25,861 bases of DNA, taken from positions 1 through 25,861 of the IMG/VR virus record IMGVR_UViG_3300013131_000222; one strand, 5' to 3'. The notes beneath the pieces were generated by a model. It was not told the origin of the DNA. It did not search any database and was given only the letters and a program-made list of their open reading frames with translations. This stretch comes from a virus. Shown piece by piece: positions 1 to 21,501 of the stretch (the stretch's first letter is position 1; every line of letters starts with the position of its first letter). The position numbers were made by a program, and so were the translations under genes.

Positions 1-543
1 GGTGGCGGGGGCGGTCCGATTGAACTCGGCCTGCCACTGATAGTTGTCATCACTGAACGCACCCTCGCCTACCCCCATGCTTTTGATGCTCTTTCGTGTG
101 ACGCCCACCACGGGGCGCTCCGCGCCAGCCGCCTTGTCGATGGCCTTTGACACATCGGCCGACTTAGGAAACCCGGTTCCATAGAGCCATTGGAGCACGT
201 CCCGCATCTCGAAGCCGGCGAGTCGCAGCGCCATGCCCATCAGGTCTTGCGTGCGCGAGCCCGCGAAAACTAGCGCGTGGCCACCGGGTTTGAGCACCCG
301 CAGGACTTCGCGCCATACCTCTGGACCAGGCACCCAGGCGTCCCACGACCGGCCCATGAACCCGCGCTTGCTCGGCCGGTACTCCTCGCCCGCGCACCAC
401 GCCCGCAGGCACTCCAGCACGTCGGCCTGCGAGTGCTCCGATAGCCCGTATGGCGGGTCGGTGACCACGGCGTCGACCGACGAGTCGGCCATGCCCCGGA
501 GCGCATCGAGGCAGTCGGCGTTGATGACCACGGCGTCAGGCAT
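1..543 (-). CDS. DNA methyltransferase (DPPY class), C-terminus cut by window edge
   Basis: About 181 residues are visible, starting at an ATG (541-543) that overlaps the end of the upstream gene by 8 bases. Residues 29-32 are DPPY, the catalytic motif of amino (N6-adenine or N4-cytosine) DNA methyltransferases. It sits in the usual context after a hydrophobic strand (VDAVVTDPPYGL). Further on are LKPGGHALVFAGSRT and the segment WLYGTGFPKSADVSKAIDK, which I know from phage-encoded site-specific methyltransferases. A family member would normally have an FxGSGTT SAM-binding loop near the C-terminus; that part would lie beyond position 1. It presumably methylates phage DNA against host restriction; target base and site cannot be read. 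It is unlike the second methyltransferase at 16793-18001, which has an N-terminal ParB domain. Confidence 0.85.
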   Translation of the reverse strand, partial: MPDAVVINADCLDALRGMADSSVDAVVTDPPYGLSEHSQADVLECLRAWCAGEEYRPSKRGFMGRSWDAWVPGPEVWREVLRVLKPGGHALVFAGSRTQDLMGMALRLAGFEMRDVLQWLYGTGFPKSADVSKAIDKAAGAERPVVGVTRKSIKSMGVGEGAFSDDNYQWQAEFNRTAPAT

Positions 544-1390
544 TGAAGGCCCCCTGGCTCAAGAGCTGCTCCATGTATGCCTTCGCCTCCGGGACCAGGT
601 GGCGCGCCGTGATGCCGGGGTGTGTCCAGTTCCGGCCGCCCTCGTCTTCGCGAAACGACTCGGGGTTGTTGCTGATGGTGCGAAACGTCATGAACTGGTT
701 CTGCGTGTCCTTCTCGTAGGTCTTCTCCTCGCGAACCATGCCCGCGAAGATGTCCGTAACGTGGCGCGCGCGCAAACGCTCCGCACCGGCTGTGCCGGGG
801 GCCAACCGCCCGCCGTACTGCACCTGACCACCGCCCACCGCGCTCAGCGTCGGCGCGAGCTTGCCCGCCGCGCGCATGACCGCCCGGCCCATCGTGCGGG
901 CCGCCGTCGCCGTGAGGTCGCCACGGAACGCCTTGGAGTCGGCGCGCAGGCTGGCCTCGGTGAACTGCGACCCGGCTGGCGCCCCGTTGCGCCCGCCGGC
1001 GCCCGCGCCCATGTGCCGGAACGGGATGCTCACGTAGAGGTAGCCCGCCTTGGACACCTTCAGCCGGCGCGTGCCCGGCTTGAGGATGGTCAAGCGCAAG
1101 TCCCACGAGGACATGCCGTGCTCGACCATCCAGGGCAGAGAGCCCAGGACCTCGATGACGTACCGCTCCGCGCCCGTGGGGCCCTTCTCCAGGCGCATCG
1201 GCTGGATGGCCTTCACGTAGTCGCGGGCCGACGTGAAGAGCCGCTGCTGCGCCAGCACGACGAGGCGCGAGCGCGCGACCTGGGCGGCCTTCTTCAGGTT
1301 GAAGCTCTTCGACACGCCGGCGACACCCGCGAGCTCGGGGATGCTGGCCAACTCGGTCGGGTCGAGGTACTCAGCCACCGACGCCCCCAT
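536..1390 (-). CDS. Phage head-tail connector/completion-like protein (284 aa)
   Basis: A 284-residue protein starting at the ATG at 1388-1390 and overlapping the upstream gene by 20 bases. Near the C-terminus (about residues 235-268) it has MTFRTIS followed by NWTHPGITARHL. This W-x-HPGI-x-A-R combination I associate with phage neck or tail-completion proteins. The N-terminal third is helical and basic and contains a SKSFN segment resembling the KS motifs of the capsid module. The middle has a Gly/Ala-rich stretch (about 126-140). No enzymatic motif is visible. Its position between a Cys-rich connector-like protein and a methyltransferase supports a structural role. The specific function (neck, tail terminator or minor tail) is inference. 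Confidence 0.6.
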   Translation of the reverse strand: MGASVAEYLDPTELASIPELAGVAGVSKSFNLKKAAQVARSRLVVLAQQRLFTSARDYVKAIQPMRLEKGPTGAERYVIEVLGSLPWMVEHGMSSWDLRLTILKPGTRRLKVSKAGYLYVSIPFRHMGAGAGGRNGAPAGSQFTEASLRADSKAFRGDLTATAARTMGRAVMRAAGKLAPTLSAVGGGQVQYGGRLAPGTAGAERLRARHVTDIFAGMVREEKTYEKDTQNQFMTFRTISNNPESFREDEGGRNWTHPGITARHLVPEAKAYMEQLLSQGAFNA

Positions 1391-2291
1391 TGCCCTGGGT
1401 TGTGTCCCAGTCCAACTTGCACATGATTTCGAGCGGGAGCCGCTCGATGCGCATGTCCGGGGCCTTCTGCTTCGACTTGTCGTCGCGGATGGCGTGGTTG
1501 AAGGTCACGACCTCGTAGCGCGGGTGGTAGAGGTAGGTGATCGCGTACTGCTCGCCCACCTTCGGCGCGGTGCCGCGCTGGTCGCCCAACGTCCAGTCCA
1601 GCGAGCCGCCGATCACGACGTCACCGCCCTCCGTCGGCAGGCCGAACGCCGCGTAGGCCGACGCATCGACCACGGGGACCTTCTGGTCCTGGACGATGGC
1701 GCAGTCCAGGCCCACCGAGAGAACGTCGCCGGGCAGGCCAGCCGGGGTCATCTTCCGCAGGCGCATCACGCTCTGCCGGACGTTGCGCTTCACCAGCTCG
1801 CCGTCGGGCTTCGTGACCATCAGCTCGGTCTGGATGCTCGCGATGGGGTAGCGAGGGCGCTCGCGCACGGCGCGCCGAGTCCGCTTCTCCGAGAAGATCA
1901 TCACCGACGAGAGCAGCGTGTAGCGGTCGCGCGGGCCAGGCCGGTACTCGCTGCGCATCGTGAGGCGCGCGGTCCCGAAGCTCCAGGTCCCGAAGGCGAT
2001 CATCGTGTCCTTGTTCGACTCCAGATTGTCGTAGATGACGTTGATGACCTGACCGTCGTACCACTCGGTCCCGAGGCCCCCGCACACCGGGCACATGGCG
2101 TTGGGCTGCGCCGTCTCGGCATTGTTCCGGCATGGGCAGGCGCCGCTCTTCTCCCACAGCGTCGGGCGCCCGTGCTGGTTGAGTACCGCCTCGAAGTAGC
2201 CCGGCCGGAAGTCGATCCGCTGGTTCTCTTTGATGCGGGAAGGCGGCGCCTTCTGGACGCGGCGCACCTGGCGGTCGTCGCGCTCGCTCAT
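1371..2291 (-). CDS. Virion-associated protein with N-terminal Cys4 zinc knuckle (306 aa)
   Basis: I place the start at the ATG at 2289-2291, which overlaps the upstream stop by four bases (ATGA); the same frame stays open further upstream but there overlaps the preceding gene. Four cysteines (about C52, C54, C67, C70) lie in the pattern CPC...CPVCGGLG, a DnaJ-like zinc-knuckle layout. The rest (about 80-306) is predicted mainly beta, with phrases such as RYTLLSSVMIFSEKRTRR and YAITYLYHPRYEVV. I do not recognise a named family with certainty. Proteins with a CPVCxGxG knuckle do occur in phage connector regions, and the neighbours fit that. A role in head-tail joining or the proximal tail is inferred. 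Confidence 0.55.
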   Translation of the reverse strand: MSERDDRQVRRVQKAPPSRIKENQRIDFRPGYFEAVLNQHGRPTLWEKSGACPCRNNAETAQPNAMCPVCGGLGTEWYDGQVINVIYDNLESNKDTMIAFGTWSFGTARLTMRSEYRPGPRDRYTLLSSVMIFSEKRTRRAVRERPRYPIASIQTELMVTKPDGELVKRNVRQSVMRLRKMTPAGLPGDVLSVGLDCAIVQDQKVPVVDASAYAAFGLPTEGGDVVIGGSLDWTLGDQRGTAPKVGEQYAITYLYHPRYEVVTFNHAIRDDKSKQKAPDMRIERLPLEIMCKLDWDTTQGNGGVGG

Positions 2292-2860
2292 ACCGCATGC
2301 TCCGCTGAGAGCCGCGCCAGCGGCCCGCGATACAACACGAGTTTCGGGGAGGAATCGCACCAGACGCGAGATCCCCTCGTGGCCCCGGCGGGCCTGCGAG
2401 CCGAACGGCCAGTCGTCAACCCCAACGTTCGATACCCGGCGCGACGGAAACACGCCCCAGGCACGCTGGACGCTACCGCGGCTGGGTCAACCATCGTCTC
2501 CCAGTGCTCAGGAGCCCAACCGTATCGAGTGCGCCACTCGTCGGACGCGATGGTGTGCCACGCTCGCAGGATCTCAGACGCCGCAGGCTCGCCCTCCGCT
2601 CGCTCCGAAACGCGGAACATGGCGCAGCAGCCCGTCTTGGCAAGGGGGCGCGCGTCGCACAGCCCAATCCGCCGACGCGGCGCCAACTTGAACGCGGGCT
2701 CCCCCAATACGATGTGCCCGCGAACCCTGCCCCCGGTCCAGATAGCCCATGCGAGCTTCTTGCCAGGTGGGGCGCCACCGGAACCGGTGTAGTGCTCGCG
2801 GAACGCCGCGACAATGTCCGGGTCCCACGTAGACAGCGGGATGAAGGCGGAAACGCTCAT
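2288..2860 (-). CDS. DruA/DUF4338-like (GNAT/Mom-type) protein
   Basis: A 190-residue protein with ATGA overlaps at both ends, so it is embedded in the connector operon. The second half follows the DUF4338/DruA pattern: RYGWAPEHWETMVD (about 112-125), then PGACFRRAGY and GLTTGRSARR (134-156), then SSPKLVLYRGPL (171-181). The N-terminal half has HYTGSGGAPPGKKLAW (23-38) and a G-x-I-x-L-G strand, as in the N-terminal part of that family. DruA belongs to the Druantia anti-phage system, and I understand the domain to be distantly related to GNAT-type folds such as the Mu DNA-modification protein Mom. A phage copy could modify DNA or nucleotides or counter a host system; neither can be read from sequence. 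No other Druantia component is present. Confidence 0.6.
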   Translation of the reverse strand: MSVSAFIPLSTWDPDIVAAFREHYTGSGGAPPGKKLAWAIWTGGRVRGHIVLGEPAFKLAPRRRIGLCDARPLAKTGCCAMFRVSERAEGEPAASEILRAWHTIASDEWRTRYGWAPEHWETMVDPAAVASSVPGACFRRAGYRTLGLTTGRSARRPAGATRGSRVWCDSSPKLVLYRGPLARLSAEHAV

Positions 2861-3921
2861 ACGACGTGCAGGCTCGGGCCGTGGTAGGCGTTGCGGATGG
2901 CCGGGAGCAGCCGCTTGATCTCTTTGTCGTACTGGATGAGCCGCGAGCCGTAGCCGGCGTTCGTCGCGGAGCTCGTCGTCGAGATGCTCTGCGACAGCCC
3001 GCCCATCGAGAGCGAGTAGGAGGCCACGCCCGCGCCGCCGAGCAGGTCGCCGGCCGGATTCAGGATGCTGAAGTTGGCCAGCAGCGAGACCAGGTGCTTG
3101 ATGTCGGCGGGCACCTGCCCCGCGGCGAAGCCCGCCCGGTACTCGATGTGGAAGAGGCCCGGAAAGAGCTGCGAGCCACGCCCGTGGATGAGCGGGATGC
3201 GCTGCCCGATGTAGTAGGCCAGCGAGCCCACCGCGGGGACAAGCTCGATGCGCGCGGCCTCGGGGATCGTGAGTTGCACCCAGTCGAGCGGGAAGTCGAT
3301 GATGGGCGTGTCGTTGCCGGGGTAGAGCGCCTTCACCGAGACGATCTCGCGCACCGGCCGGCGGTCGAGCTTCAGTGTCGCGAACTGCGCGTAGTCGGGC
3401 AGGTGGTAGTCGTGGCGCTCGGGCTTCGGCGACAGGATGTCCACGGGCGCGATGTTGATGTCGAGCACGCGCTCGGCCGCCGCCGTGGCCTGTCTGATGG
3501 CCGTGACGAACATGCCGTCCGGGTACGGGACGCCGTTGTCGTCGGTGAGGTCGAGACCGTAGAGGTAGTCCCGGATCAGCTCCTCGCGGGACGTGATGAG
3601 GTCGGGGACGGCTGCCTGGGCCGCGACCTCGATGCGGAACTGCCGGACGATCTCGGCCTGCCCCTCGAAGGGGGTCAGCGTCCAGCGGTCGTAGAAGGTC
3701 TCGGCCTCGGCGAACGGCCCGACGAGGACCTGGTACTCGCCCTGCTCGATGCGGTTGATGTCGCGGGCGCCGACGGTGAGCACGACCTCGCCCGTGCGGG
3801 CCCGGACGATCTGGACGCGGCGCAGCTCGTAGGGGTCGAACGCCTGGCCGTTGTCCATCGTCCAGGTGGCGCGCAGGTCGATGACCTGACCCACGACCGC
3901 TGCATCTCGACGCACCGACAT
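2857..3921 (-). CDS. Head-tail connector/adaptor-like structural protein (354 aa)
   Basis: The ATG at 3919-3921 is preceded by a strong Shine-Dalgarno (GGAGGG, four bases upstream). The first 100 residues look like a beta domain (QVIDLRATWTMDNGQAFDPYEL...QIVRARTGEVVLTV). From about residue 105 an alpha/beta region follows with DLITSREELIRDYLYGLDL, then NIAPVDILSPKPERHDY, and a helical C-terminus ending in KEIKRLLPAIRNAYHG. A helix-rich region plus a strand dealing with 'LYPG...IIDFPLDW' is typical of gp6/adaptor-like connectors. The neighbours are small virion-like genes. The N-terminal beta part may be a fused decoration or Ig-like domain. The connector role is inferred from layout and position, without a diagnostic motif. 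Confidence 0.55.
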   Translation of the reverse strand: MSVRRDAAVVGQVIDLRATWTMDNGQAFDPYELRRVQIVRARTGEVVLTVGARDINRIEQGEYQVLVGPFAEAETFYDRWTLTPFEGQAEIVRQFRIEVAAQAAVPDLITSREELIRDYLYGLDLTDDNGVPYPDGMFVTAIRQATAAAERVLDINIAPVDILSPKPERHDYHLPDYAQFATLKLDRRPVREIVSVKALYPGNDTPIIDFPLDWVQLTIPEAARIELVPAVGSLAYYIGQRIPLIHGRGSQLFPGLFHIEYRAGFAAGQVPADIKHLVSLLANFSILNPAGDLLGGAGVASYSLSMGGLSQSISTTSSATNAGYGSRLIQYDKEIKRLLPAIRNAYHGPSLHVV

Positions 3922-15891: not shown

Positions 15892-16793
15892 CACTCGCCC
15901 TCCATCTGCTGCGGGACAGTCGGGGCGTTCGCCGGCGGTCGCAGCACCCACTCGTCGTCGAAGGCCCATCCGTCTGGAACCATGACGGTGGCGCACCCGC
16001 ACCAGGGGTGGCTCGGAGGCAGGCACGGCACCCACTGCGACTTCGGCTTGCGGAAGTTGACCCCGTGCGGCGGCAGGTCGGCCAGTCGGAAGATCCGCGG
16101 CTTTCCGGCCCGTGTGTAGAAGCCGAGGCAGACCTCGCAAGCGTCCGGGTGCGGGATGACTGCGACGAGCGCCTCGTGGCCTTCCTCCTCCTCGATGGCA
16201 TCGGCGATGCCCGCGTTCACCGCGGCCTGGATCTCGGTCGCGGCGATGCGGTGCAGGTCTCGCGCCCAGTCCTCGCCGAGCTTCTCGCCCAGCGTGCCGC
16301 GCAGCCGGCGCCAGGACTCGCGCGCCTCGATGGACGTGGCGGTCTCCTCGGCGATGACCCGCCGGGCCTCGCGGGCCTGCTCGTTGTCGCTCGAGATCAG
16401 CGTGGTCGCGAAGTCGTCGGCGACCTCGTTCCCCAGACCCACCACGAACTGCGCGCCCTTCATGCGGGCCTGCCGCGCCATCCGGCGCTCCCAGTCGGAC
16501 AGCCCGTCGTGGATCGCGTCGGCCTGGCCGTCGAACTCCTCGGGTCGAGCGTTCGCGACCCGGGCGGGGTTGGCGTGTGACTCGTAGCCCAGGAGGTAGG
16601 CGTTCCCGGCGACGCCGCGCGGGCCGAAGCTGTCGATGAGCGCCTGCGTCAACTTGCCTGCCTTCACCGCGTCGTCGAGCAGTTCCTTGGGGATCGCGTC
16701 AACGCCGTAGAGCTGGATGGCCAGCACGACGAAGTTCTGCCGGATGAGGCTCTTGACGTGCTCCAGTTCATCGGGGGTGAGCGGGCGGGCCAT
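15891..16793 (-). CDS. MuF-type minor head protein (SPP1 gp7-like)
   Basis: A 300-residue protein with the ATG at 16791-16793 sharing one base with the methyltransferase stop. The N-terminal 200 residues are helical (DELEHVKSLIRQNFVVLAIQLYG... EDWARDLHRIAATEIQAAVNAGIADAI). The C-terminus has HPDACEVCLGFY (215-226), then PCLPPSHPWCGCATVM (256-271). The 'C-x-x-C ... HPxCxC' signature with C219, C222, C265 and C267 is characteristic of the MuF/head-morphogenesis domain. The 'T-E-x-x-x-A-x-N-x-G' helix is also typical. It normally associates with the portal in the prohead and affects DNA ejection. Here it is separated from its portal by about 6 kb of regulatory, lysis and modification genes. Confidence 0.85.
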   Translation of the reverse strand: MARPLTPDELEHVKSLIRQNFVVLAIQLYGVDAIPKELLDDAVKAGKLTQALIDSFGPRGVAGNAYLLGYESHANPARVANARPEEFDGQADAIHDGLSDWERRMARQARMKGAQFVVGLGNEVADDFATTLISSDNEQAREARRVIAEETATSIEARESWRRLRGTLGEKLGEDWARDLHRIAATEIQAAVNAGIADAIEEEEGHEALVAVIPHPDACEVCLGFYTRAGKPRIFRLADLPPHGVNFRKPKSQWVPCLPPSHPWCGCATVMVPDGWAFDDEWVLRPPANAPTVPQQMEGE

Positions 16794-18001
16794 CAGGCGG
16801 CCTCCGCGAGCCGCTCGGCGGCCACGGCCTCGAATGTCCGGCCGTCGCCGTCCAGCGTCGCGGCCTTGCCCGTGAACGCCTGCCAGCGCCGGACCGCCAC
16901 GTCCACGTACTCTGGCGCGAGTTCGACCGCGTAGACGTGCCGGTGGGTCATCTCGCCCGCGATGATGGTGGTCCCGCTTCCGCTGAACGGCTCGTAAAGA
17001 GTCGCGCCGCGTTCCGTCGTGCGTTCGATCAGCCACTTCCACAGGCCGACAGGCTTTGGGCATGGATGGTCGATATCTGGCGAGACCTCGGTGTGGACGA
17101 TGGCGTCTGGATGGCTTCCTTTGCCCTTGGCAAGTTTCGGATCCTTGCCGTAGCAGAGCATTGGCTGCCAGCAGCAGAATCCCCACGGCCCGCAGCCTAT
17201 CCCGGCCGGCGTGAACCACGCCATCGTCCATGTCGGCCTTGGGTAGATGAACTGATTCATTATTCCCGATGTCAGAACGACGACGGGCGCAATGCCTTGC
17301 GCAATCGGAAGAAACCCATCGACCAGCGTTTTCAGGTTCTCCACGCTGTCGTCATAGGTCGCATAGTTGTTCTTGTCGGTCGCTGAATTCCCGAGGCCAT
17401 AAGGTGGGTCAGTCAGACATGCGTCAGCCTTTCTGCCGCCCGTGGCGCGATGGACGGCATCCGCGTCTGTGCACGAACCGCAGATCAGCCGATGCTCACC
17501 CATGAGCCACAGGTCCCCGGCCCGCGTAACCGGCTGCTGGGGGGGTGCTGGCGCGTCGTCCGGATCGCCACCACCGCCACCTGGCGGTTGCTGCTCCGCG
17601 AACGCCCACAGCGCGTCGAGCTTGAGGTCGCTGAACAGGTCGCCCAGGGCCGCCTGCGCATCACCGAGCAGCTCGGCCAGTTGCGCCTCCGCCCAGTCGC
17701 CGCCGATGGCCGCGTTGTTGAGCGTGAGGTTCAGGGCTTTCTCGTCGGTCTCGTCGAGGTCGACCACCCGGACTTCGGCGTGCGTCTCGCCCAGGGCCAC
17801 GAGCGCCTTCACGCGCTGGTGCCCGCCCGCGAGCCGATTGAGGCGCCGGTTGAACACGATGCCGCCGAGCTCGCCGAACTTCGACAGGCTTGCCTTGAGC
17901 CCGGCCATCGCCGCCGGGGTCATCTTGCGCGGGTTGTAGCCGGCCGGCAGCAGGTCGGTCAGCAGCATCCGCACCGTCTCGGTCTGCGGGATCGCCGTCA
18001 C
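16793..18001 (-). CDS. ParB-like domain fused to DNA methyltransferase
   Basis: A 402-residue fusion. Residues 1-125 are a ParB/Srx-type nuclease-like domain (LLPAGYNPRKMTPAAMAGLKASLSKFG, then the GGHQR box at 59-63). A Gly/Pro-rich linker spans 138-157. Residues 160-380 form an amino-methyltransferase: DPPY at 198-201, GPWGFCCWQPMLCYGK, HPCPKPVGLWKWLIE at 312-326, then FSGSGTT at 339-345 and YAVELAPEYVDVAV. The DPPY-before-FSGSGTT order is the beta-class arrangement for N6-adenine or N4-cytosine methylases. Fusions of this kind are frequent in phages; the ParB part is thought to aid DNA recognition. Both domains look complete. Codon choice in about 17040-17440 is less GC-rich than in the ParB part. 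Confidence 0.88.
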   Translation of the reverse strand: MTAIPQTETVRMLLTDLLPAGYNPRKMTPAAMAGLKASLSKFGELGGIVFNRRLNRLAGGHQRVKALVALGETHAEVRVVDLDETDEKALNLTLNNAAIGGDWAEAQLAELLGDAQAALGDLFSDLKLDALWAFAEQQPPGGGGGDPDDAPAPPQQPVTRAGDLWLMGEHRLICGSCTDADAVHRATGGRKADACLTDPPYGLGNSATDKNNYATYDDSVENLKTLVDGFLPIAQGIAPVVVLTSGIMNQFIYPRPTWTMAWFTPAGIGCGPWGFCCWQPMLCYGKDPKLAKGKGSHPDAIVHTEVSPDIDHPCPKPVGLWKWLIERTTERGATLYEPFSGSGTTIIAGEMTHRHVYAVELAPEYVDVAVRRWQAFTGKAATLDGDGRTFEAVAAERLAEAA

Positions 18002-20455: not shown

Positions 20456-21289
20456 TCAGGAGAGCGGCATCTGCTCGTCTGCGGGGCGGGATGTCCGACC
20501 GCTGCGGCGATCAGCCTCGGCGCGGAAGGCGGCCATGGCGCCGGGGTGGAAGTCGGGACGCGAGAGCACCCAGCGCAGGAGCCCGGCGTCGATGTCCGTC
20601 AGGCGAGCGCCGCGCGACTTCCCGAAGCCCAGGCGCAGCACGGCCTCGCCGTCGCCCAGTATATCCCGGTAGAGCTTGCGCCCGAAGTCCCGCTCCTCGC
20701 GGACGAGCACCTCGCGCCACTGGGCCTGGACCTGGAAGGCATGGTCCAGCCCCGTAGGCATCAGCCCCTCGCGGACGAAGGCCACGAGCAACTCGGCGGT
20801 GGCGCGGGCGTCGTCGTCGGCGGCGTGGGCGTTGTCGAGGGTGATGCCGTGGCGCCCGCAGACGTCCGACAGCTTCGACGGCAGGTGGTTGTGCCGCCGG
20901 CGCAGGAAGATGAACGGGTCGAGCACGCGGGCGCCGTCCAGCCGGAACGAGAGCCCCTCGTTCTCGAAGGCCGCGTTCACCATCGGCACGTCGAAGTGGA
21001 CGGCGTTGTAGCCGGCGAGCACGACGTCGTCTGCCCCGAGGCGCTCGGCGATGCGCTGGGCGACGTCCCCGAAGAACGGGTCGCCGGCGACGTCCTGATC
21101 GCGGATGCCGTGGACGCTCGATGCCTCGGGCGGGATGGGCATGCCGGGGTTCAGCCGCAGGGTGAAGCTCCGGCCGACCTGGCCGCGGATGAGCTCGACC
21201 GCGGCGATCTCCACGACGGCGTCGCGGGCCGGGTCAATACCGGTGGTCTCGGTGTCGAAGACGAGGATGTTGGCGTCGAGGATGTTCAC
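20456..21289 (-). CDS. DnaQ-type 3'-5' exonuclease with DUF3820-like tail
   Basis: A 277-residue DEDDh exonuclease. FDTETTG (11-17) gives D12 and E14, GYNAVHFD (93-100) gives D100, and HAADDDARAT (155-164) gives H155 and D160. All five catalytic positions are present. The start is a GTG (21287-21289) overlapping the previous stop, with GGAGG seven bases upstream. Past residue 180, RLGFGKSRGARLTDIDAGLLRWVL (219-242) and a basic helix resemble DUF3820 domains ('FGK-x-x-G-x-x-(L/I)-x-(D/E)-(L/I)-x-x-x-(Y/L)-L-x-W'). This combination is known from phages. It may act in replication, repair or host DNA turnover. It closes the regulatory island before the 476-base gap. Confidence 0.85.
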   Translation of the reverse strand: MNILDANILVFDTETTGIDPARDAVVEIAAVELIRGQVGRSFTLRLNPGMPIPPEASSVHGIRDQDVAGDPFFGDVAQRIAERLGADDVVLAGYNAVHFDVPMVNAAFENEGLSFRLDGARVLDPFIFLRRRHNHLPSKLSDVCGRHGITLDNAHAADDDARATAELLVAFVREGLMPTGLDHAFQVQAQWREVLVREERDFGRKLYRDILGDGEAVLRLGFGKSRGARLTDIDAGLLRWVLSRPDFHPGAMAAFRAEADRRSGRTSRPADEQMPLS

Positions 21290-21501
21290 GATGTCGCCTC
21301 CAGGAACGCTTCCTTGAACGTGCTGGCCAACTTGACCAGCTTGTTGAGCCGACCGAGGGATTCCTCGGTGATCTCGACCGTGCCGAACCGGGAACGACAC
21401 TTGAGGCACTCCCGACGTCGATGCACCTGACCTTTCCGTGCCCGCGAGTTGATGACCTTCGTGTCCCCCGCGCACGAGGGGCAGACCACGCCGGCGCTCA
21501 C
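21286..21501 (-). CDS. NrdR-like zinc-ribbon protein without ATP-cone
   Basis: A 71-residue protein starting at a GTG (21499-21501) that overlaps the previous stop. VVCPSCAGDTKVINSRARKG then HRRRECLKCRSRFGTVEI (about 5-43) is close to the N-terminal zinc ribbon of the ribonucleotide-reductase repressor NrdR ('CPxC ... SR ... RRRREC-x-x-C-x-x-RF-T-x-E'), with C7, C10, C32 and C35. NrdR normally continues with an ATP-cone of about 100 residues; here only a short helix follows. It may bind NrdR-type DNA sites, or be a general zinc-ribbon module. It sits between the XRE protein and the exonuclease. Confidence 0.7.
   Translation of the reverse strand: MSAGVVCPSCAGDTKVINSRARKGQVHRRRECLKCRSRFGTVEITEESLGRLNKLVKLASTFKEAFLEATS

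What the first reader, a model, noticed from the sequence alone, without database searches (positions are those of the whole stretch)
2288..2860. DruA/DUF4338-like protein nested in the connector cluster
A 190-residue protein with the DUF4338 hallmark residues (YGW-x-P-x-x-x-E-T-x-V-D, then PG-x-C-[FY]-R-x-A-G-[YW], then T-x-GR-x-x-R) sits inside a structural operon with four-base overlaps on both sides. DUF4338 is best known from the Druantia defence system, where DruA acts with other proteins. Here no other Druantia component is present. It could be a DNA or nucleotide modifier (the fold is thought to be near Mom/GNAT), a counter-defence decoy or a defence moron.
Basis: partly seen in the sequence, partly recalled or inferred. 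Interest (0 to 1): 0.78.

Follow-up and report, generated by a model that had tools for sequence, protein, structure and literature searches.

The report
Phage cousin of DruA and Mom
A small phage gene, tucked between virion genes, encodes a GNAT-fold protein related to the bacterial defence protein DruA and, through it, to the phage Mu DNA-modifying enzyme Mom, so it most likely tags phage DNA bases to escape host defences.

Summary
The ORF is real: minus strand 2288-2860, 190 aa, ATGA overlaps on both sides, motifs as quoted. It belongs to an unnamed family (T) with seven more IMG/VR contigs and one MAG contig, 57-69% identical to the window protein, under purifying selection, on at least five backbones whose flanks are otherwise largely unrelated: mobile cargo. 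The DUF4338 link holds by profile: a T-only search of 395 genomes hits DUF4338-type proteins, and profile-profile alignment gives 98% probability over 146 columns (score 90; shuffles at most 18). Pfam's own DruA model stays below its cut-off (11.7 against 27 bits). T also matches phrog_24928. DruA-type proteins align with Mom (97%, score 74; shuffles at most 21); T does not match Mom directly by sequence. The AlphaFold model is a GNAT fold whose top-ranked solved structure is Mu Mom (Z 11.7, tied with other GNATs). Two DNA methyltransferase genes lie in the window. Most likely function: late-expressed, CoA-dependent modification of phage DNA bases against restriction; substrate and chemistry are inferred. 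New variant of a known kind.

The parts
2288..2860 (-). The gene: 190-aa stand-alone GNAT-fold protein of the DruA/Mom superfamily (family T)
   Evidence: Translation; relatives; T-only alignment hits DUF4338-type proteins in genomes; profile comparison; structure model
2857..2860 (-). ATGA overlap: start of the gene with the stop of the upstream gene
   Evidence: Sequence read directly
2288..2291 (-). ATGA overlap: stop of the gene with the start of the downstream gene
   Evidence: Sequence read directly
2789..2794 (-). Codons of H23-Y24, the HY motif shared with DruA-type proteins, phrog_24928 and Mom (Mu H58-Y59 in the 241-aa numbering)
   Evidence: Invariant in T; alignments
2576..2578 (-). 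Codon of S95, the position that aligns through DruA-type NLAS with the serine changed in the inactive S124A mutant of Mu Mom; Gly in L002 and L003
2486..2500 (-). Codons of E121-T-M-V-D125, counterpart of ETFVD (DruA type), TFVD (phrog_24928), SFAD (Mom)
2432..2461 (-). Codons of P134-GACFRRAG-Y143, counterpart of GTCYRAANW (DruA type), PGxCFxxAGW (phrog_24928), YQASNF (Mom)
2857..3921 (-). Upstream gene, 354 aa, virion/connector protein (phrog_772 tail fiber; phrog_442 head-tail adaptor)
1371..2291 (-). Downstream gene, 306 aa, virion structural protein (phrog_1004)
1..540 (-). DNA methyltransferase, third gene downstream, cut by the contig end (PF01555 N6_N4_Mtase 33.9 bits against cut-off 26.7)
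16793..18001 (-). ParB-like domain plus DNA methyltransferase fusion (phrog_498, phrog_67, phrog_620), a second DNA methyltransferase in the window

Best explanation
The gene encodes a phage-borne, stand-alone GNAT-fold enzyme whose closest named relatives are the catalytic-core part of DruA/DUF4338 proteins and, beyond them, Mom. It is expressed late with the virion genes and most likely transfers an acyl-derived group from a CoA donor to an amino group on phage DNA bases before packaging, so that the DNA resists host nucleases. Shown here: the ORF, its family, its conservation, GNAT fold of the model, homology of T to DruA-type proteins and phrog_24928, homology of DruA-type proteins to Mom, cargo-like spread. 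Inferred: CoA use, nucleic acid as substrate, the target base, late expression, and protection as the benefit. Placement in the DruA/Mom superfamily alone I hold at about 0.93.
For: T-only alignment finds DUF4338-type proteins first in 395 genomes (E 7.0e-8 and 5.3e-7). T against five DruA-type sequences: probability 98.1, score 90.3, 146 columns, 50 shuffles at most 17.6; DruA-type against ten Mom proteins: 96.9, score 74.1, 170 columns, shuffles at most 20.6. T against phrog_24928 proteins: 96.7, score 67.0. Model pLDDT 76.8, pTM 0.75; Mu Mom 8bv8 ranks first by VIA-align, Z 11.7, 162 residues, rmsd 4.3. Position S95 aligns with Mom S124, the residue changed in the inactive mutant. All T proteins have pI 10.0 or more. 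Two DNA methyltransferase genes in the window; the phrog_24928 protein of phage Lily lies directly before two DNA methyltransferase genes. DUF4338 is classed as a GNAT domain in PMC10853773; Mom proteins are GNATs that modify adenine N6 (PMC7824862) and protect phage DNA from restriction (PMC6483171, abstract).
Against: No direct sequence match of T to Mom (probability 1.7; 0.1). S95 is Gly in L002 and L003, and D125 is Leu in L006, so two Mom-like positions are not strictly kept. The structural lead of Mom over other GNATs is under 1 Z unit, a tie; Foldseek ranks ordinary acetyltransferases above it. No biochemical activity of DruA was found in the papers held. Methyltransferase neighbours are common in phages and are not adjacent here.
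Confidence: 0.55

Rival explanations
1. A GNAT enzyme that acts on another substrate: tRNA or rRNA, a host or phage protein, or a small molecule. Benefit could be shutting off or rewiring the host.
For: The fold is shared by many protein and small-molecule acetyltransferases with Z 9.6 to 11.4, tied or nearly tied with Mom; GNAT fold shows no substrate. The DruA-type relatives have no known activity.
Against: The nearest sequence relatives with a studied function, at two steps, are Mom DNA modifiers; very basic protein; DNA-metabolism or methyltransferase context in several relatives.
Confidence: 0.25
2. A non-catalytic DruA-like protein: a decoy or inhibitor that imitates DruA and blocks Druantia or a related host system.
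For: Homology to DruA-type proteins across the GNAT core without the N-terminal part; stand-alone cargo gene in unrelated phages; loss of the S95 position in L002/L003.
Against: HY, E121-T122, G135, C137-F138-R139 and the C-terminal residues are invariant in seven distinct sequences at 55-71% typical identity, as expected of an active site; T is far from DruA in sequence (about 27% over the aligned core), too far for simple mimicry.
Confidence: 0.1
3. A defence gene carried as a moron, acting against competing phages or restricting host DNA.
For: DruA belongs to a defence system (PMC7251935); cargo-like distribution.
Against: Located inside a late virion operon in the window with translational coupling, the wrong time for superinfection exclusion by a prophage; no ORF in the window exceeds 754 aa, so no intact large DruE-type helicase, though the contig may be partial.
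Confidence: 0.07

Closest known systems
DruA / DUF4338 (PF14236), Druantia type I
   Same: HY motif, GxxL, R(D/R) block, LAS-IL, ETFVD, GTCYRAANW, G-T-T-GR and the terminal PKL-PL-R strand are collinear over 146 columns.
   Different: Below the Pfam cut-off (11.7 and 15.4 bits against 27); lacks the N-terminal part of about 100 residues or more found in the DUF4338-type proteins read here; lacks the NNxRFLIL stretch; no Druantia partner recognised nearby; CF instead of CY.
phrog_24928 (unnamed; phages Lily, Salinibacter M8CR30, plasmid and Micromonospora phage copies)
   Same: Direct HMM match (E 6.4e-5); HYSR, FR, VDP-PGxCFxxAGW; stand-alone small phage proteins.
   Different: Shorter (148-159 aa where annotated), lacks the GEPxxK-RR block and the TTGR-ARRP tail; only the C-terminal half aligns well with DruA type (57 columns).
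Mom (PF25680), phage Mu DNA methylcarbamoylase
   Same: GNAT fold, top-ranked structure for the model; HY, the S124 position, SFAD and YQASNF have counterparts reached through DruA-type proteins; late phage gene of basic protein.
   Different: No direct sequence match; no match to PF25680 in the scans; Y159 position is Phe in T; no com-like regulator seen.

Membership tests
DruA (PF14236) | Score above the curated Pfam cut-off of 27 bits | tested here: not met
   11.7 bits for the window protein, 15.4 for L006, none reported for the others scanned
DruA (PF14236) | Homology of the core to DUF4338-type proteins | tested here: met
DruA (PF14236) | N-terminal region before the GNAT core | tested here: not met
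   The window protein starts 22 residues before HY; DUF4338-type proteins read here mostly have 120 or more
Druantia type I system | druB, druC, druD, druE alongside | tested here: inconclusive
   No ORF over 754 aa and no helicase neighbour found by PHROGs among the proteins scanned, but the contig may be partial and druB-D have no models in the libraries scanned
Mom (PF25680) | Match to the Pfam Mom model | tested here: not met
   No PF25680 row at E up to 10; direct profile comparison not significant
Mom (PF25680) | Serine at the S124 position | tested here: inconclusive
   Ser in 5 of 7 distinct T sequences, Gly in L002 and L003; the mapping runs through DruA-type sequences
Mom (PF25680) | Modifies adenine in DNA | not testable with these tools
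   Needs nucleoside mass spectrometry
GNAT superfamily | GNAT fold | tested here: met
   Model pLDDT 76.8; best matches in PDB and viral libraries are GNATs
GNAT superfamily | Acyl-CoA binding | not testable with these tools
   No canonical Q/R-x-x-G-x-G/A loop recognised by eye in the alignment; Mom proteins read here lack it too
phrog_24928 | HMM match | tested here: met
   E 6.4e-5 window, 5.9e-4 L002, 3e-3 L006, 6.8e-3 L007, partial coverage

The most novel reading that the evidence does not exclude
DruA, Mom, phrog_24928 and the T family are branches of one superfamily of nucleic-acid-modifying GNATs: Druantia then contains a base-modifying enzyme of the same kind that phages use to hide their DNA, and T is a new phage branch with its own chemistry (Phe in place of the Mom Tyr, Ser not strictly kept).
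Probability: 0.3. Interest if true: 0.75.

Novelty: new variant of a known kind. Interest (0 to 1): 0.5.

Why it matters
DruA is listed as of unknown function (PMC7251935). A small stand-alone phage relative that links it by profile to Mom turns DruA's activity into a testable question: does this fold modify DNA bases? It also adds an unannotated candidate to the set of phage DNA-hypermodification enzymes and anti-restriction tools. No held paper was found that mentions three or more of Druantia, DruA, GNAT, Mom and hypermodification together, which is weak evidence that the link has not been discussed.

Tried and rejected
Pfam, PHROGs, NCBIfam and PADLOC scans gave no named family above threshold. 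Phage collection tblastn at E 0.01: nothing; at E 10 only weak leads, of which the Clavibacter tape-measure and Lily hits were weak by themselves. The Rhizobium plasmid hit (H2) has its match on the other strand from the annotated gene and was dropped. PDB sequence search gave only chance hits such as designed propellers and CFTR. Direct T-Mom sequence homology was tested and rejected. A scan of 148 genomes of one phylum with the Pfam DruA model found nothing, and its controls did not ring either, so it says nothing. Chance ORF and antisense artefact were rejected by the relatives and dN/dS; antisense similarities follow from the coding strand.

Full report
Observation. The window is a 25,861-base IMG/VR virus record. 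The gene is on the minus strand, 2860 to 2288, 190 aa, with ATGA overlaps at both ends. Genes at hand are mostly on the same strand and include portal, head maturation protease, major head protein and connector or tail genes. The gene sits between a phrog_772/phrog_442 protein and a phrog_1004 virion protein. The three motifs in the finding are present as written.

Family. Close relatives were found in seven other IMG/VR contigs and one contig of a MAG labelled Bacteroidetes from the GSL series; three of the seven (L003, L004, L005) carry the same protein. Identity to the window protein is 57-69%. Invariant residues include H23, Y24, G33, E54, K58, R62, R63, R71, H102, Y113, E121, T122, G135, C137, F138, R139, Y143, G147, G151, K173, P180, R183; S95 is Gly in L002/L003 and D125 is Leu in L006. 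For the closest distinct pair dN is 0.041 and dS 0.345, so the protein is under purifying selection.

Spread. Within the stretches held (about 6 kb each side where available) no other window gene has a homologue in these loci, except a DNA polymerase exonuclease subunit shared with L006. L002 and L004 share a backbone, and L007 and L013 share two replication genes. That makes at least five different settings: virion operon in the window, near an exonuclease in L006, next to a primase in L007, near helicases in L013, unassigned genes in L002 and L016. The gene behaves as accessory cargo.

Relation to DruA. Pfam's DruA model gives 11.7 bits for the window protein and 15.4 for L006, below the cut-off of 27. 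A DNA pattern for the recalled DUF4338 motif found a viral contig whose protein scores 103.7 bits to PF14236, and two plasmid relatives, one annotated DUF4338. To avoid choosing the answer, I searched 395 genomes of one phylum with an alignment of T proteins only: apart from the MAG contig itself the best matches were two proteins with the DUF4338 signature, E 7.0e-8 and 5.3e-7; these two were identified as DUF4338 type by their motifs, not scanned against Pfam. Profile-profile alignment of T with five DruA-type sequences gives probability 98.1, score 90.3, 146 columns, against at most 17.6 in 50 column shuffles. With only three DruA-type sequences it was 96.9 and 74.9, against at most 24.1 in 100 shuffles.

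Relation to Mom and phrog_24928. T matches phrog_24928 directly (E 6.4e-5) and by profile (96.7, score 67.0). DruA-type sequences match ten Mom proteins, score 74.1 over 170 columns, against at most 20.6 in shuffles. T and Mom do not match directly. So the Mom link is by transitivity through DruA-type proteins. In these alignments HY, the LAS serine, ETFVD and CYRAANW of DruA type correspond to HY, S124, SFAD and YQASNF of Mom. PDB entry 8bv8 is titled an inactive S124A mutant of Mu Mom, and its sequence carries Ala at residue 124 of the 241-aa reading.

Structure. An AlphaFold model on eight sequences has pLDDT 76.8 and pTM 0.75. Foldseek matches are GNATs in both libraries, Mom among them. 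VIA-align ranks Mu Mom first, Z 11.7, 162 residues, rmsd 4.3; the next rows, other GNATs, are within 1 Z and count as tied. An earlier model without any DruA sequence was weaker but also GNAT-like.

Function. PMC10853773 calls DUF4338 a GNAT domain; PMC7824862 describes Mom-family GNATs as acylating the N6 of adenine, and PMC6483171 states that the modification protects phage DNA from restriction. The window carries two DNA methyltransferase genes, and the Lily relative lies directly before two more. All T proteins are very basic. I therefore favour base modification of phage DNA at a late stage; the timing is inferred from the operon. Other acyl acceptors remain possible, since fold alone shows no substrate. 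Decoy and defence readings have only circumstantial support.

Standing. T is outside PF14236 and PF25680 by their own models, yet homologous to the first and, through it, to the second. I file it as a new variant of a known kind: an unannotated phage branch of the DruA/Mom GNAT superfamily. Whether the DruA-Mom link is already published I cannot say; a full-text search of the held library found no paper with three of the five terms.

Noticed in passing
L027 332-1325; L040 (reading frame of 467 aa): DUF4338-type domains occur at the N-terminus of reading frames that continue into transposase-like sequence; L027 is annotated as an ISAs1 family transposase. DruA-like domains may travel with insertion sequences.
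   Followed up: partly
L019 9330-10238 and L020 (same IMG/VR contig): One viral contig carries two identical copies of a DruA-type gene in opposite orientation near its two ends, as an insertion sequence or terminal repeat would give.
   Followed up: no
window 16793-18001 (-): A ParB-like domain fused to a DNA methyltransferase lies ahead of the head genes.
   Followed up: no
window 20456-21475 (-): A DNA polymerase exonuclease subunit (phrog_192) lies between the portal and head genes, an unusual place; a 37% identical relative is in L006.
   Followed up: no
L009 5950-6396: A phrog_24928 protein of 148 aa sits unannotated in the flagellar gene region of an Acetobacter pasteurianus plasmid.
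   Followed up: no
L013 5348-6004: The gene just before the T gene in L013 matches phrog_12600 (unknown) strongly and a DNA methyltransferase family only weakly (E 0.0083).
   Followed up: no
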